NCBI GenBank assembly: GCA_026984795.1
Contig: JALSRK010000076.1
Location: forward strand, 62,001-126,000
Reading direction: 5' to 3'
From: Solibacteraceae bacterium
GTDB lineage: Bacteria; Acidobacteriota; Terriglobia; Bryobacterales; Bryobacteraceae
Length of the DNA: 64,000 bases
The notes under the pieces were generated by a model. It did no database searches. It was given only the letters and a program-made list of their open reading frames with translations, and was not told the origin of the DNA. The position numbers and the translations under genes are program-made. Each line of letters opens with the position of its first letter. Position 1 is the stretch's first letter. Positions 12,981 through 19,930 of the stretch are shown in pieces.

Positions 12981-13201
12981 CGTTTCTCGAGCCGGGTTGC
13001 CGCCGCCTCGCAGACATCGCCGCCGCGGGACCGCCCACGGGCCCGGCGCTCCTTGTTATTATCGTGCGGGCGGCGGAGGGCGTTGCCCGGATGGTCCCGC
13101 CGAAGGCGGTGCGGCGCCGTGGGAACGCAGAGGCAGAGGAGCGCGGAACCTGCTGTTTCGCGCCGGCGTGTGTTAGAGTGAAATTCTCGGTTGGTCACCG
13201 G

Positions 13202-14665
13202 ATGTCGGTTCAGATCTTCCTTCAGGGACACGTTTTCGGCATCGAGGATTTTTTAAGGTTACCGGCTCCCTCAGGCGAAGCCCCGTGGGGTGTCTGCGGT
13301 GAGAACCTGATCATCGGCCGGAGCCGTTGGGCGTCCCTGTTGACCGAGGTGCTGCCCCGCGCCCTGCTCGAGGAGCTCGGGTTGCCGAAAGCGTTGCTTG
13401 GCTCGAGCGGCGGCCGGCAGTTCCTGCTGATTCTTCCGGGCGAGACGCGGGAAGCCGCGGGCGAATTCCTGGAGAAAGCGGCGGCCGAAATCCGGGACTT
13501 GAGCGGCGGCGCGCTCCGGTTGCTGTGGGCGGCGACGGAAAACTTGGGCGACTGGGCCGTCGTCCGCCGGCGTTTGCGGGACGGATTCGCCGGGCGCCTC
13601 GATCACCCTGCGGCCGGCGCTCCGGAGGATTTTTTCGAGCCCTTCGAGCAGGCCGGCGAGGCCGGTCACGAATGGAACTACTTCGTATCGGTCTTCGGAC
13701 CGGCTTTCAACGAGGCCAAAACGGTCGGCTGGTCGCCCGAGACTCCGGGCCGGGTGCTGGCGGGCGAAGGGAAACATCAATGGCCGCTCACCGATTCCCG
13801 CGAGGCGATCCCGCTGGCGCGGCATACGGCCCCGGCCGACGGCGCCGGCATCGCCGACCCGCCGGCGCTGGCTTCCCGCGCCGAAGGCCGGAAAGTCTGG
13901 GGGGTGCTGCGGGGCGACGTGGACAACTTCGAGTTCCGGATCCGGCGCCTGACGACCATCGAGGAACACGTGAAGCTTTCCCTGCTCTACCGCCGGTTCT
14001 TTGCCGGGGAGCTCGAGGTGCTGTGTTCGCTGCCGGAATTCTGGCAGAAGGTGTCTATTATCTACACGGGCGGCAACGATTTCGCCGTCTTCGGCGCCTG
14101 GGATGCCTTGATCGCTCTGGCGCGGGAGGTGCAGCGCCTGTTTCACCGCTTCAACGAAGAGAACCTCAAAGAGATCCCCGGAGCCGAGGGCAAGACCATC
14201 TCCATGGCCCTGGCGATGGCTCCGGAGCCGGAGACCCCGCTGGTGGAGGTCTTCGGTGAGGCGGGCCGGCGGCTGGAGTACGCCAAGGCGGCCGGACGCG
14301 ACTGCTTCCATGTTTTCGGCCATCTCGTCGAATGGCGGCAGTTGGCCCAAGCGGCCGAATTGCACGAGAACCTGGAACGGTTGGTGACCGAGTTCGGCGG
14401 CTCCCCGAGCCTGCTCGGGGATCTGATCCGTTTCTACCGGCGCGCCGGTACGGCCGCCGGATCCGCTGCGGAAGGACGATTCCACCGTCCGTGGCGCTAT
14501 CATCGCCGCCTCAGCCTCGTGGCTGCAGGTGCGCGTGACCGGGAGTACCAGCGGCTGCGCTCCCGGCTGGTGGCTGATCTCATCGGCAAGAGCGCGGCTC
14601 AGGCGAAGCTTCGCCCCGGCGGCCGGGTGGCCCTCGAGTGGGCGAAGCTCTTGTCGGAGGACTGA
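13202..14665 (+). CDS. csm1: Cas10/Csm1-like large subunit, short form without HD domain
   Basis: About 487 residues from the ATG at 13202, much shorter than the 750-850 typical of Csm1. It begins directly with the Palm1 signature (FLQGHVFGIEDF, then IIGRSRWASLLTEVLPRALLEELGLP and SSGGRQFLLILP), so the usual N-terminal HD nuclease is absent. The linker to Palm2 (residues 130-230) contains no Cys, so the zinc finger is also missing. Palm2 starts with GVLRGDVDNFE (Asp239, Asp241) and reaches YTGGNDFAVFG at 288-298, where GGDD is replaced by GGND (Asn292, Asp293). The TISMALAM, RRLEYAKAAGRDCFHVFG and C-terminal helical domain match Csm1. Frame upstream of 13202 is open to 13064 but shows no domain. 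Three bases of non-overlapping spacing plus stop separate it from csm2. DNase activity is not expected; oligoadenylate synthesis is doubtful. Confidence 0.88.
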   Translation: MSVQIFLQGHVFGIEDFLRLPAPSGEAPWGVCGENLIIGRSRWASLLTEVLPRALLEELGLPKALLGSSGGRQFLLILPGETREAAGEFLEKAAAEIRDLSGGALRLLWAATENLGDWAVVRRRLRDGFAGRLDHPAAGAPEDFFEPFEQAGEAGHEWNYFVSVFGPAFNEAKTVGWSPETPGRVLAGEGKHQWPLTDSREAIPLARHTAPADGAGIADPPALASRAEGRKVWGVLRGDVDNFEFRIRRLTTIEEHVKLSLLYRRFFAGELEVLCSLPEFWQKVSIIYTGGNDFAVFGAWDALIALAREVQRLFHRFNEENLKEIPGAEGKTISMALAMAPEPETPLVEVFGEAGRRLEYAKAAGRDCFHVFGHLVEWRQLAQAAELHENLERLVTEFGGSPSLLGDLIRFYRRAGTAAGSAAEGRFHRPWRYHRRLSLVAAGARDREYQRLRSRLVADLIGKSAAQAKLRPGGRVALEWAKLLSED

Positions 14666-14669
14666 TCCG

Positions 14670-15110
14670 ATGGCGGAAACACAACAGGAAACGCGGAGTC
14701 GGGAGACCAGGGCCGCCCGGGAAGCCCGCTCGGGCCGGAGCCAGGGGCGGAGTGGCGACCGCGGCGGCCCCCCGGAAATCGACCTCGAGAAGCTGATCGC
14801 CGACAGCCTGTACCTGGATAACCAGGCGCACGCGATCGTAGCCCGTATGCGGGACATGGATTCGGGCACCAAGAGCCAGTTGCGGCGGCTCTATAACGCC
14901 GTGCGCCGCGCTTGCCGGGCGCCGGAGGCCGAACGGCAGCACCACTTCGTCATGCTGCGGGCGCGGCTGGCGTACACGATCGCCCGCCACTCGCTCCGCA
15001 GTCTGGACAGCCTGGAGCGGCTGCTGCTCCAGGTGACGCGCAAGAATGACCCGCGGGGCTACGAACGCTTCCGCGATCTGTTCGAGGCCATCATCGCCTA
15101 CAACGAGTGA
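14670..15110 (+). CDS. csm2: Csm2, small subunit of the type III-A complex
   Basis: A 146-residue protein from the ATG at 14670, four bases after the cas10 stop. The first 40 residues are Arg/Gln/Gly-rich and look disordered. The helical core carries the Csm2 hallmarks: TKSQLRRLYNAVRRA (the family's SQxRRFY-like helix), MLRARLAYTIARH (like LKPRLAYAxGR), and the C-terminal FRDLFEAIIAYNE (like FxxFMEAIVAYH). Csm2 forms the small-subunit filament that lines the crRNA-target duplex. The call rests on these motifs and on position between cas10 and csm3. Confidence 0.85.
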   Translation: MAETQQETRSRETRAAREARSGRSQGRSGDRGGPPEIDLEKLIADSLYLDNQAHAIVARMRDMDSGTKSQLRRLYNAVRRACRAPEAERQHHFVMLRARLAYTIARHSLRSLDSLERLLLQVTRKNDPRGYERFRDLFEAIIAYNE

Positions 15111-15120
15111 GCGAGGAACC

Positions 15121-15957
15121 ATGAGCGCCCATACCGCTGAGACCGAACTGAAATTCATCGGCAAGCTGATCCTCGATGGAGAGATGCACTGCGTTACCGG
15201 ATTGCACATCGGGGCCGGAAAGGGATCGCTCGAGATCGGCGGCGCCGACAACCCCGTCGTAAAGGACGCTTTCGGGCGTCCCTACGTGCCGGGCAGCTCC
15301 CTGCGCGGCAAGCTCCGATCTCTGCTCGAGCAGGCCGCCGGGCTCGCCGTGCCCTCCCAGCTCGTCTATCTCTCCAGGCGCCGCGGCCAGGAGGTGCGCA
15401 TCCATGAGAGCGACCGGCCGGACGACGAGATCTGCCTGCTGTTCGGCCGCAGCCCCGGCCGCCTCGAGAGGACGACCGGCGAGGTGCTGGACAGCTCCGC
15501 CGCGACCCCGGCCCGGCTGGCCGTCTATGACGCGCCTCTGATCGAGGAGAGCATCACCGAGTCGATGCGCGAGAACCTCGACGACGAGCTCACCGAGGTC
15601 AAGAGCGAGAACGCCGTAGACCGCATCACCTCCCAGGCGAATCCCCGTACCCTCGAGCGGGTCCCCGCCGGAGCGCGCTTCCGGGTCCGGATGGTGCTCG
15701 ACATCCTGTGCGAAGAGGACAAGGGCCTGGTGGCGCGGCTGGCCGAGGGCATGCGCCTGCTCGAAGACGACAGCCTCGGCGGCGGCGGCTCCCGCGGAAG
15801 CGGGCAGGTTCGGTTCGCCAACCTCAGCTTGCGCTGGCGCAACCGGGCCTATTACGCCGAGGGCGGGCCGGAAGAGGAACTGCTCCAAGACGCCGACGTC
15901 GCCCGGCTCCAGGCCCTGGCGCGCGAGGAAGACTTCAGCACGAAACTCGCCGGATAG
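15121..15957 (+). CDS. csm3: Csm3, backbone RNase subunit (Cas7 family)
   Basis: 278 residues from the ATG at 15121 (an upstream in-frame start at 15046 would overlap csm2). It has the RAMP pattern of Csm3: TGLHIGAGKGS, then GGADNPVVKD, where Asp43 aligns with the catalytic Asp33 of Streptococcus thermophilus Csm3 (GAIDSPVIKD), and PYVPGSSLRGKLR. Further on, NAVDRITSQANPRTLERV matches the conserved Csm3 stretch NTIDRITAEANPRQIER, and LGGGGSRGSGQV is the glycine-rich loop. Csm3 polymerises along the crRNA spacer and cuts target RNA every six nucleotides. Because Asp43 is kept, target RNA cleavage is predicted to be active even though Cas10 is degraded. A start ten bases after csm2 supports one operon. 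Confidence 0.93.
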   Translation: MSAHTAETELKFIGKLILDGEMHCVTGLHIGAGKGSLEIGGADNPVVKDAFGRPYVPGSSLRGKLRSLLEQAAGLAVPSQLVYLSRRRGQEVRIHESDRPDDEICLLFGRSPGRLERTTGEVLDSSAATPARLAVYDAPLIEESITESMRENLDDELTEVKSENAVDRITSQANPRTLERVPAGARFRVRMVLDILCEEDKGLVARLAEGMRLLEDDSLGGGGSRGSGQVRFANLSLRWRNRAYYAEGGPEEELLQDADVARLQALAREEDFSTKLAG

Positions 15958-15959
15958 CC

Positions 15960-17000
15960 ATGCGGGAGGCGCTCTTAGTCCGGATTCGGGCTACCAGCCC
16001 TTGGCGGTTCGGCTCGGAGGCGGGGAGGCCGGACACGACGGCGGAACTCTATCACAGCGACGCCCTCTATTCGGCCGTCACCGCCGCCATACAGAGGCTG
16101 GGAAATCTCCCGGAGTGGCTCGAGGCGACCGCCGCCGCGGAGATCCCGGCGGTACGCTTTAGTTCGGGCTACCCCTGGAGGGGCAATGATCTCTTCGTCT
16201 TGCCGCCGGTGACGGTCTGGCCTTCGGAGTCCTTCGCCATGATGCATCTCCGCGGCGCCCGCTACCTGCCCCTGCGGGCGGTGAGAACGCTGCTCGCCGG
16301 CGGCGAGCTGCTGGAAGAGGAATGGATGGTGGATCCCGCCAGCCGCTGTCTTCTCCACCGTATCGCCGGGCCGGTGACCTCTGTCTTCCGGGTCTCCCTG
16401 AGGGTACGGCAGCCGGTGGACCGGATCCGCAACAGTGGTTCCGAAGCCAGGCGGATCGCCTGTCTGGAGTTCGGGCCGGAGGCCGGCGTCTGGTTCGTGA
16501 TCGCGTTCTCCGATGAACCGGCCCGGGCCCGTTGGGAAGAGCCCGTGCGGGCAGCGTTGCGGCTCCTGGCCGACAGCGGCTTCGGCGGCGGCCGGTCGCT
16601 CGGCTGGGGCCGCGGCGCCGCTCCCGCGTTCGAGAGCATCCCGTGGCCGGACCACTTCCTGCCCGAGGCCGTCGCGCCGGCCGGTGAGGCCGAAGCAGCA
16701 GCAGCGCCGCAGCCTCCTCCCGGCTACTGGCTCTTGTCGCTCTTCCGCCCCGGCCCCCGGGATCAGGTGGACTGGGACCGGGGACGGTACGCCGTCACGG
16801 TCCGGGGAGGGCGCGTCGAGAGTCCGGCTGGCTGGGGCGCAGAGAAAAAAGCGGTGCGGATGGTCCGGGAAGGCTCCGTCTTGTCGGGCGCGGCCGCACC
16901 GGTGGGTTCGGCGCCCGATGTCGCTCCTGAGGGATTTCCTCATCCCGTTTACCGGTACGGTTTCGCGCTGAACATTCCGATCCGGTTGGGGGCGGTATGA
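15960..17000 (+). CDS. csm4: Csm4, crRNA 5' tag-binding subunit (Cas5 family)
   Basis: 346 residues from the ATG at 15960, immediately after the csm3 stop. The N-terminus has the RAMP strand and ELYHSDALYSAVTAA, matching the IHSDTLFSAL motif of Csm4. The glycine-rich loop is GFGGGRSLGWGRG at about residues 209-221. The C-terminus ends with HPVYRYGFALNIPIRL, the conserved Csm4 finish. An Ala/Pro linker (PAGEAEAAAAPQPPPG) divides the two RAMP halves. Csm4 caps the complex at the crRNA 5' handle and contacts Cas10. It overlaps csm5 by four bases. Confidence 0.88.
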   Translation: MREALLVRIRATSPWRFGSEAGRPDTTAELYHSDALYSAVTAAIQRLGNLPEWLEATAAAEIPAVRFSSGYPWRGNDLFVLPPVTVWPSESFAMMHLRGARYLPLRAVRTLLAGGELLEEEWMVDPASRCLLHRIAGPVTSVFRVSLRVRQPVDRIRNSGSEARRIACLEFGPEAGVWFVIAFSDEPARARWEEPVRAALRLLADSGFGGGRSLGWGRGAAPAFESIPWPDHFLPEAVAPAGEAEAAAAPQPPPGYWLLSLFRPGPRDQVDWDRGRYAVTVRGGRVESPAGWGAEKKAVRMVREGSVLSGAAAPVGSAPDVAPEGFPHPVYRYGFALNIPIRLGAV

Positions 17001-19639: not shown

Positions 19640-19930
19640 ATGCGAAATATTGCTGTGATTTCAATCGCTTGTGCTACACTGTTGCTGTTAGGCGCACTCT
19701 CGGCGAGCGCTGTAGTTGCGACCGTGCCGCAGAGCGATTTGGCGCTAGGGCCGTGGCCGGTGCCGCCACCCCCGCCGGATGACAAGAAGGGCGGCGGTTT
19801 GGCTTTGGGGCCGTGGCCGGTGCCGCCACCCCCGCCGGATGACAAGAAGGGCGGCGGTTTGGCTTTGGGGCCGTGGCCGGTGCCGCCACCCCCGCCGGAC
19901 GACAAGAAGGGCGGTGGCGGGCGTTTCTGA
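19640..19930 (+). CDS. Small secreted protein with three 20-residue Pro-rich repeats
   Basis: 96 residues. Residues 1-27 are a clear Sec signal peptide (MRNIAVISIACATLLLLGAL, cleavage near ASA-VVA). The mature part is almost entirely three copies of LALGPWPVPPPPPDDKKGGG, the last ending GGGGRF. The repeats are Pro- and charge-rich with no Cys, so the mature peptide should be extended and soluble. I do not recognise the family. It could be a surface or matrix peptide or a ribosomal-peptide precursor, although no modification enzyme adjoins. The repeats are nearly identical at DNA level. The gene sits in an AT-richer patch and is followed by a membrane-protein gene 94 bases downstream. Confidence 0.7.
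   Translation: MRNIAVISIACATLLLLGALSASAVVATVPQSDLALGPWPVPPPPPDDKKGGGLALGPWPVPPPPPDDKKGGGLALGPWPVPPPPPDDKKGGGGRF
19741..19919 (+). repeat. Three tandem 60-bp in-frame repeats
   Basis: Copies start at 19741, 19801 and 19861. The first 49 to 56 bases are the same in all three except for a few substitutions in the first ten bases (copy 1) and in the last part of copy 3. The period is a multiple of three and encodes 20 residues. There are no unique spacers. Confidence 0.95.

What the first reader, a model, noticed from the sequence alone, without database searches (positions are those of the whole stretch)
13202..14665. Miniature Cas10 lacking HD nuclease and zinc finger, with GGND in place of GGDD
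The protein starts directly at Palm1, has no Cys in the linker and carries Asn292 in the GGDD site (codon 14075-14077). The HD DNase is certainly missing, and the first metal-binding Asp of the oligoadenylate cyclase site is changed. This shrinks Cas10 from about 750-850 to 487 residues while keeping the DVD and C-terminal helical parts, suggesting a structural role.
Basis: partly seen in the sequence, partly recalled or inferred. Interest (0 to 1): 0.85.

Follow-up and report, generated by a model that had tools for sequence, protein, structure and literature searches.

The report
A family-wide, stripped-down CRISPR Csm complex
The small Cas10 belongs to a five-gene CRISPR-type complex that has lost its DNA-cutting part, is found in most genomes of one bacterial family and seems to be inherited much like an ordinary cell gene, which suggests it may have been turned from an immune weapon into a routine RNA-handling machine.

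Summary
In detail: the 487-aa Cas10 (13202-14665) starts at Palm1, lacks HD and zinc finger, and reads GGND. It heads a complete cas10-csm2-csm3-csm4-csm5 operon, separate from a conventional III-A locus in the same genome. GGND itself is minor: 2 of 60 sequences have it, 40 keep GGDD, and the site has decayed in several genera. The larger finding is distribution: a homologue is in 214 of 237 genomes of the family, 143 of 148 good-quality ones; the operon is complete in the sampled loci except at contig ends; and its tree agrees with housekeeping GatB about as well as FabD's does. Csm3's RNase Asp is kept 60/60 and Csm2 has an arginine/glycine-rich tail. A Cas6 is widespread too, and 23 of 56 sampled carriers have no Cas1 hit. 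Best reading: a domesticated, RNA-guided RNA-cleaving Csm particle with Cas10 mainly as scaffold. Guide and target were not found; standing defence with borrowed crRNAs is a close rival.

The parts
13171..13179 (+). extended -10-like promoter element (TGnTAn[AC]nT) of the operon
   Evidence: sequence; the element was noticed by eye first, then counted: 52 of 58 loci have it 15-75 nt before cas10, shuffled mean 1.2, maximum 5
13202..14665 (+). mini-Cas10: Palm1 (about 4-115), Palm2 (about 230-370), C-terminal helical part; no HD, no zinc finger
   Evidence: domain limits from profile matches and a low-confidence model
14069..14080 (+). GGND (residues 290-293) at the GGDD cyclase site
14670..15110 (+). 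Csm2 (Cas11), 146 aa
   Evidence: PF03750 42 bits, TIGR01870 42.6 bits, both over cut-off
14670..14774 (+). Arg/Gly-rich N-terminal tail of Csm2 (shorter here than in many relatives)
   Evidence: RG/GR/RP/PR pairs 15.1 per 100 aa in tail against 1.0 in core over the 58 of 60 sequences where the core motif was located
15121..15957 (+). Csm3 (Cas7), 278 aa, with Asp43
   Evidence: TIGR02582 206 bits; Asp43 in 60 of 60
15247..15249 (+). codon of Csm3 Asp43, the presumed RNase Asp
   Evidence: equivalence to the known Csm3 catalytic Asp is recalled, not from a call
15960..17000 (+). Csm4 (Cas5), 346 aa
   Evidence: TIGR01903 117 bits, PF17953 46 bits
16997..18145 (+). Csm5, 382 aa, overlaps csm4 by 4 nt
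   Evidence: TIGR01899 59.8 bits
18336..19229 (+). XrtA/PEP-CTERM-type ATPase: frequent neighbour, probably not part of the complex
   Evidence: TIGR03015 286.9 bits, under its cut-off of 324.5; directly downstream in 29 of 56 loci with csm5

Best explanation
The operon encodes a reduced Csm ribonucleoprotein that has become a largely vertically inherited core component of this Acidobacteriota family. Csm3 and Csm2 form the filament on a guide RNA and Csm3 cuts paired RNA; Csm4 and mini-Cas10 cap the 5' end and Csm5 the 3' end. DNA cutting is gone (HD lost), and cyclic-oligoadenylate signalling is lost or optional (the site decays repeatedly, as in this GGND member). The Arg/Gly-rich Csm2 tail probably adds RNA binding or condensation. 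A family-wide Cas6, in many genomes encoded away from any detected array, probably processes the guide precursor. The selected function is probably routine RNA processing or regulation rather than adaptive immunity. Shown: gene content, distribution, conservation, partial congruence with housekeeping genes, catalytic-residue patterns. Inferred: assembly (from known Csm complexes), RNA cutting, Cas6 partnership, housekeeping role. Unknown: guide and target.
For: Homologue in 214 of 237 family genomes, 143 of 148 of good quality, 70 of 76 genera; 212 of the 214 have a best E of 1e-40 or better, whereas the conventional Cas10 of the window's genome scores only 2.9e-8. Of 396 genomes drawn over the phylum, 7 outside the family matched at E<=1e-10, the best 5.6e-18. 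Five-gene operon in 59 loci: csm2 and csm3 in 59, csm4 in 58, csm5 in 57, the gaps being contig ends. Mean identity to the window: Csm2 79.5%, Csm3 73.3% against FabD 71.8% and GatB 69.7%. dN/dS of the csm genes 0.015-0.174 within genera. Csm tree vs GatB: r 0.678, 9 of 27 splits; FabD vs GatB: r 0.677, 7 of 27. Csm3 Asp43 60/60. Cas6 profile in 205 of 237 genomes; Cas6 distances covary with Csm after removing GatB, partial r 0.54, 0 of 3000 permutations, 23 genomes. No CRISPR array in the fetched mini-Csm stretches. In 24 cas1-less genomes one repeat-end pattern gave 0-3 hits, and a second gave 1-13 with no cluster among the places listed. No relative in viral contigs.
Against: No guide RNA or target was found. 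The two repeat patterns miss other repeat types: five of eight Cas1-positive genomes gave only 0-4 hits with the first, so arrays in cas1-less genomes are not excluded. Two of 40 Cas6 loci (L111, L147) do have a CRISPR array about 7 kb away. The Cas6 family also serves ordinary CRISPR loci (type I-D in G425, beside cas3 in G456), and 12 of the 20 listed genomes without mini-Cas10 have it. 40 of 60 keep GGDD, so signalling may persist in many members. Conflicting split pairs with local support >=0.95: 13 for Csm vs FabD+GatB, 11 for Csm vs GatB, none for FabD vs GatB; Csm vs FabD r is only 0.576. Genus g239 lacks the operon in all five genomes, so it is not indispensable.
Confidence: 0.47

Rival explanations
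1. Standing antiviral effector: the mini-Csm is still an immune complex that takes crRNAs in trans from whatever arrays a genome has, cutting phage RNA without DNA cutting or signalling.
For: Trans recruitment of crRNAs is suggested for array-less III-G (PMC12669027 passage) and in trans sharing between loci is mentioned in PMC11229360 (passage). 34 of 58 sampled genomes have a Cas1 hit, and the window's genome has 115 matches to its III-A repeat end. In G410 a six-repeat array with the same 8-nt repeat end (ATTGAGAC) lies about 7 kb from the Cas6. Cas6 is widespread.
Against: 23 of 56 sampled carriers have no Cas1 hit, and two repeat-end patterns show no visible clusters there (limits as stated). 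Near-universal retention is unusual for defence genes (recalled). Repeats found in the family are diverse, so one repeat-derived tag would not serve every genome.
Confidence: 0.36
2. Signalling complex: most members make cyclic oligoadenylates for effectors elsewhere in the genome; the window's GGND copy is a lineage-specific loss.
For: 40 of 60 have GGDD and 7 GGDE; [quoted passage not shown] D241 is 60 of 60.
Against: The site is degenerate in several genera while the complex persists. No effector gene in the five-gene operon. Csm3 and Csm2 are much better conserved than Cas10. CARF effectors in cas1-less genomes were not searched.
Confidence: 0.13
3. Decaying relic of a III-A CRISPR system that has lost HD, cyclase site and array.
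For: Missing HD, zinc finger and neighbouring array; GGND.
Against: dN/dS 0.015-0.174, recurrent promoter element in 52 of 58, five genes present, Csm2 and Csm3 identity at the level of FabD and GatB.
Confidence: 0.03

Closest known systems
Type III-A CRISPR Csm effector complex
   Same: Same five effector genes with family-level matches; Csm3 Asp kept; Palm1-Palm2 Cas10
   Different: No HD, no zinc finger, variable cyclase site, no array or adaptation genes found beside it, family-wide distribution, Arg/Gly-rich Csm2 tail
Subtypes III-C, III-G, III-H, III-I (inactivated or lost Cas10 Palm)
   Same: Cyclase activity predicted lost; III-G also has no array found in its loci (PMC12669027, passages seen)
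   Different: Here the gene set is plain III-A, HD rather than Cas7 catalysis is lost, and Palm decay is lineage-specific
mCpol miniature Cas10 (PMC12657230, abstract beginning and passages seen)
   Same: Small Cas10-related protein with Palm domains
   Different: The passages describe an enzyme making c-di-AMP; ours sits in a csm operon and has a C-terminal helical part
HD-less Cas10 beside csm2 and csm3 in G086 (L011)
   Same: Starts at Palm1, no HD in its 529-aa frame
   Different: Keeps two CxxC pairs and GGDD; a weak hit in another family of the phylum

Membership tests
Type III-A (Csm) effector | Cas10/Csm1 with Palm domains | tested here: met
   PF22335 65.7 bits, cut-off 27; but the full-length model TIGR02578 gives 145.2 bits, below its cut-off of 170
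Type III-A (Csm) effector | Csm2, Csm3, Csm4, Csm5 in one operon | tested here: met
   All over NCBIfam cut-offs; same order in the 59 loci as far as contigs reach
Type III-A (Csm) effector | Csm3 RNase Asp | tested here: met
   Asp43 60 of 60
Type III-A (Csm) effector | HD nuclease (in 65% of III-A per PMC11229360, so not strictly defining) | tested here: not met
   Absent in the window; no HD-like extension seen in 59 relatives
Type III-A (Csm) effector | GGDD cyclase site | tested here: not met
   GGND in the window; GGDD in 40 of 60
CRISPR-Cas adaptive immune system | CRISPR array beside the genes | tested here: not met
   Repeats flagged in six mini-Csm stretches, window included, are all tandem repeats with near-identical units
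CRISPR-Cas adaptive immune system | Any array in the genome that could supply crRNAs | tested here: inconclusive
   Present in the window's genome; in 24 cas1-less genomes only two repeat-end patterns were tested
CRISPR-Cas adaptive immune system | crRNA-guided target recognition | not testable with these tools
   Needs RNA from the complex
III-G/III-H (inactive Palm) | Cas7 catalytic Asp not conserved, HD apparently active (PMC12669027 passage) | tested here: not met
   Opposite pattern: Csm3 Asp 60/60, HD absent
mCpol | Palm enzyme acting without Csm subunits (recalled in part) | tested here: not met
   Encoded with csm2 and csm3 in 59 of 59 loci

The most novel reading that the evidence does not exclude
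A Csm complex was domesticated in the ancestor of a bacterial family into a non-immune, RNA-guided RNA-processing machine, fed by a Cas6 with a guide that does not come from a CRISPR array, with Cas10 reduced to a scaffold.
Probability: 0.33. Interest if true: 0.95.

Novelty: new variant of a known kind. Interest (0 to 1): 0.83.

Why it matters
CRISPR effectors are normally patchy and gained and lost quickly (recalled). A Csm operon whose Cas10 is in 143 of 148 good genomes of a family, with Csm2 and Csm3 as conserved as fatty-acid and tRNA-amidation enzymes, is a strong candidate for a CRISPR ribonucleoprotein with a non-immune job. It makes the question whether Csm complexes can be domesticated directly testable: purify one, sequence its RNA, delete it. 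It also gives a natural series of Cas10s losing cyclase sites while the RNase site stays, which separates scaffold from enzyme functions.

Tried and rejected
Guide-RNA hunt. Flanks of cas10/csm5 and of Cas6 were compared by blastn. Among the best matches listed I saw long stretches shared between relatives, as expected of neighbouring genes, and no short block standing out as a common RNA; coding was not masked, so this is a weak negative. The long cas10-csm2 gaps are open in frame with Csm2 over most or all of their length and read as its tail. Lower synonymous divergence in csm2/csm3 was checked for an embedded RNA: codon conservation is raised over both genes (ratio 1.21 and 1.20 against about 1.07 elsewhere) with no single sharp peak, which fits codon bias or expression. 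One pattern hit about 0.5 kb from the window genome's C41 Cas6 looked like a lone repeat, but it lies in what reads as an alpha-galactosidase gene (name recalled from the sequence): rejected. Rfam found nothing in the window at gathering thresholds.

Repeats. Those flagged in mini-Csm stretches (L064, L066, L084, L085, L101, window) are tandem repeats with near-identical units. The repeat in L147, which I had first taken for a tandem repeat, proved to be a six-copy CRISPR array with differing spacers. That fact favours the defence rival a little, so I lowered the best reading from 0.50 to 0.47 and the novel case from 0.35 to 0.33 and raised the rival from 0.33 to 0.36.

Structure. A three-sequence AlphaFold model had pLDDT 47.4; Foldseek ranked Csm1 first but with TM 0.26 to 0.37, so it is only weak support. 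The second structure job was not used.

Trees. The planned IQ-TREE topology test failed (exit 1) and was not repeated; congruence rests on FastTree splits and distances.

Literature. Nine searches listed no paper whose title or abstract beginning describes this arrangement. For most papers only listings were seen; passages were seen in PMC12669027, PMC12657230, PMC11229360 and PMC11742911. The library lacks most subscription papers.

Full report
OBSERVATION. The ORF 13202-14665 encodes 487 aa, starts at Palm1, has Cys only at 32, 275 and 368, and reads GGND at 290-293 with N292 at 14075-14077. Palm2 matches PF22335 at 65.7 bits (cut-off 27); the Palm1 region matches Csm1_B at 21.2 bits, below its cut-off of 26.4. 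The full-length Csm1 model TIGR02578 gives 145.2 bits, under its cut-off of 170. A profile of 59 homologues matches 18 distinct solved sequences at E<=0.001, all Csm1/Cas10 chains.

OPERON. csm2, csm3, csm4 and csm5 follow at 14670, 15121, 15960 and 16997; each passes its NCBIfam cut-off. The fetched neighbourhood has no CRISPR array, and Rfam finds nothing in the window. The genome's Cas1 and PF10040 Cas6 hits are all on other contigs. The same genome holds a conventional III-A locus on contig C9: a Cas10 frame of 864 aa with an HD motif, zinc finger and GGDD, Cas1, Cas6, a CARF protein, and 87 repeat copies in the 19.9-kb stretch fetched; its repeat end has 115 matches genome-wide, those listed all on C9. 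Between the two systems Csm3 is 41% and Csm2 28% identical over the aligned parts, so they are distinct.

DISTRIBUTION. The family-level search found the mini-Cas10 in 214 of 237 genomes at E<=1e-5, 143 of 148 with at least 90% completeness and at most 5% contamination, 70 of 76 genera. Best E is 1e-40 or better in 212 of the 214; the two weaker ones, G422 and G446, match only residues 1-151 and 1-81 of the query. Of seven non-finders rechecked, six stayed without a match at E<=10 and G473 gave 0.131. Genus g239 lacks it in all five genomes. Of 396 genomes drawn over the phylum, 10 matched at E<=1e-10; three are of this family and the best of the other seven is 5.6e-18. Two of those seven were looked at: L011 is an HD-less Cas10 that keeps CxxC pairs and GGDD, L008 runs off its locus. 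One viral-contig scan found no relative; the 22 plasmid records with Csm3 matches are all under 60% identical. The family is not named by the tools; two relatives are titled Acidobacteriota or Acidobacteria and a neighbour is an acidobacterial VWFA protein. That it is Bryobacteraceae is my guess.

SAMPLE. I fetched 57 family loci from 57 genomes in 37 genera, picked for room on the contig and spread, not at random, and added L045 and L046. Of these 59 loci, csm2 and csm3 are found in 59, csm4 in 58, csm5 in 57; the missing ones are at contig ends (L045, L065). Starts were placed by script; L079 is cut at its contig end and L095 is short (397 aa). The ATPase gene lies directly downstream in 29 of 56 loci with csm5, and a VWFA gene within 2.5 kb upstream in 9 of 56.

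CATALYTIC SITES. Over 60 Cas10 (window included): GGDD 40, GGDE 7, GGND 2 (window and L074), 11 single variants. Degenerate sites fall in all four g213 loci, both g218, the one g264, two of five g233, and singly elsewhere. D241 is 60/60 and no sequence has CxxC. Csm3 Asp43 is 60/60. So the presumed RNase site is held while the cyclase site is repeatedly lost.

SELECTION AND DESCENT. Mean identity to the window: Csm2 79.5%, Csm3 73.3%, Csm5 51.1%, Cas10 50.4%, Csm4 45.9% (57-59 loci, aligned columns only, much of the Csm2 tail left out); FabD 71.8% and GatB 69.7% (29 genomes). dN/dS over eight within-genus pairs is 0.015-0.174 for the csm genes; one csm5 pair was saturated. For 30 genomes, Csm vs GatB trees share 9 of 27 splits (r 0.678, highest of 3000 permutations 0.355); FabD vs GatB 7 of 27 (r 0.677); Csm vs FabD 7 of 27 (r 0.576). 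Against: conflicting split pairs at >=0.95 number 13 between Csm and FabD+GatB and 11 between Csm and GatB, none between FabD and GatB. The longer Csm alignment tends to give higher supports, but some transfer is not excluded, and no formal topology test was obtained. An extended -10-like element precedes cas10 in 52 of 58, a pattern chosen after looking at the sequences.

CSM2 TAIL. Csm2 has an N-terminal tail rich in Arg/Gly/Pro: RG/GR/RP/PR pairs 15.1 per 100 aa against 1.0 in the core in the 58 of 60 sequences where the core motif was located; in L053 and L045 the motif search failed. In the 32 loci with a gap of at least 80 nt before the placed start, the frame is open upstream by 33 to 182 aa; true starts are not known. 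Such tails often bind RNA or drive condensates (recalled).

CAS6. PF10040 hits 53 of 58 sampled genomes, Cas1 34 of 58. Of the 58, 56 carry mini-Csm (G473 and G504 do not); 23 of the 56 have no Cas1 hit, and 20 of those 23 have a PF10040 Cas6. A profile of 38 Cas6 hits 205 of 237 genomes, 132 of 148 of good quality; it was built from 40 fetched loci, chosen to avoid copies beside cas1 where there was a choice, with L111 and L131 dropped by me before alignment as unlike the rest. In five Cas6 loci taken as queries, no neighbouring gene was shared by more than 6 other loci, apart from frames overlapping cas6 itself. In 38 of the 40 loci no array was detected; L111 and L147 have one about 7 kb away, the latter with six repeats ending ATTGAGAC. 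Cas6 and Csm distances correlate (r 0.674), also after removing GatB: partial r 0.54, 0 of 3000 permutations, 23 genomes. Against exclusivity or simple vertical descent: the same Cas6 family sits in a type I-D locus (G425) and beside cas3 (G456); 12 of the 20 listed genomes without mini-Cas10 have it; and Cas6 vs GatB r is 0.503, while the highest permutation reached 0.544. Genera g230 and g231 (G473, G474, G475) lack both.

ARRAYS. The III-A-type repeat end gives 0-3 hits in 24 cas1-less genomes; of eight Cas1-positive genomes three give 98, 115 and 287, and five give 0-4. The I-D-type end gives 1-13 hits in the 24 (backward control 0-7), with no regular series among the places listed; the list is truncated. 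Of six Cas1-positive genomes G623 gives 93, G425 23, G533 6 (five regularly spaced), the others 3-8. Other repeat types exist in the family, so arrays are not excluded.

MECHANISM. Most likely a guide-loaded Csm filament that cuts RNA by Csm3, capped by Csm4/mini-Cas10 and Csm5, without DNA cutting and with optional or lost signalling; the arrangement is taken from known Csm complexes. Domestication is favoured over standing defence by distribution, conservation and cas1-less carriers, but guide and target are unknown and the margin is small: 0.47 against 0.36.

Noticed in passing
G000:C9 (L107): Conventional III-A locus with HD/zinc-finger/GGDD Cas10, CARF protein and a long array in the same genome as the mini-Csm.
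   Followed up: partly
G000:C41:52974-53918 (L109): Cas6 gene with no array detected in the 12.6-kb stretch fetched; relatives across the family; profile A2 has no match among solved structures.
   Followed up: yes
L147:16744-17117 (oriented with Cas6; G410): Six-repeat CRISPR array about 7 kb from Cas6, repeat ending GGGGATTGAGAC; whether cas genes accompany it was not checked.
   Followed up: partly
L064:9045-9345: Five near-identical 70-bp tandem units just upstream of mini-cas10; not CRISPR.
   Followed up: partly
window 19640-19930: Small ORF with three 60-bp tandem repeats encoding PPPPPDDKKGGGLALGPWPV units.
   Followed up: no
csm2 and csm3 in within-genus pairs: Synonymous divergence often lower than in neighbouring genes (e.g. 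csm3 0.32 against ATPase 1.13 in G601/G594); likely codon bias.
   Followed up: partly
L011: HD-less Cas10 starting at Palm1 with CxxC pairs and GGDD in another family of the phylum, a possible intermediate form.
   Followed up: partly
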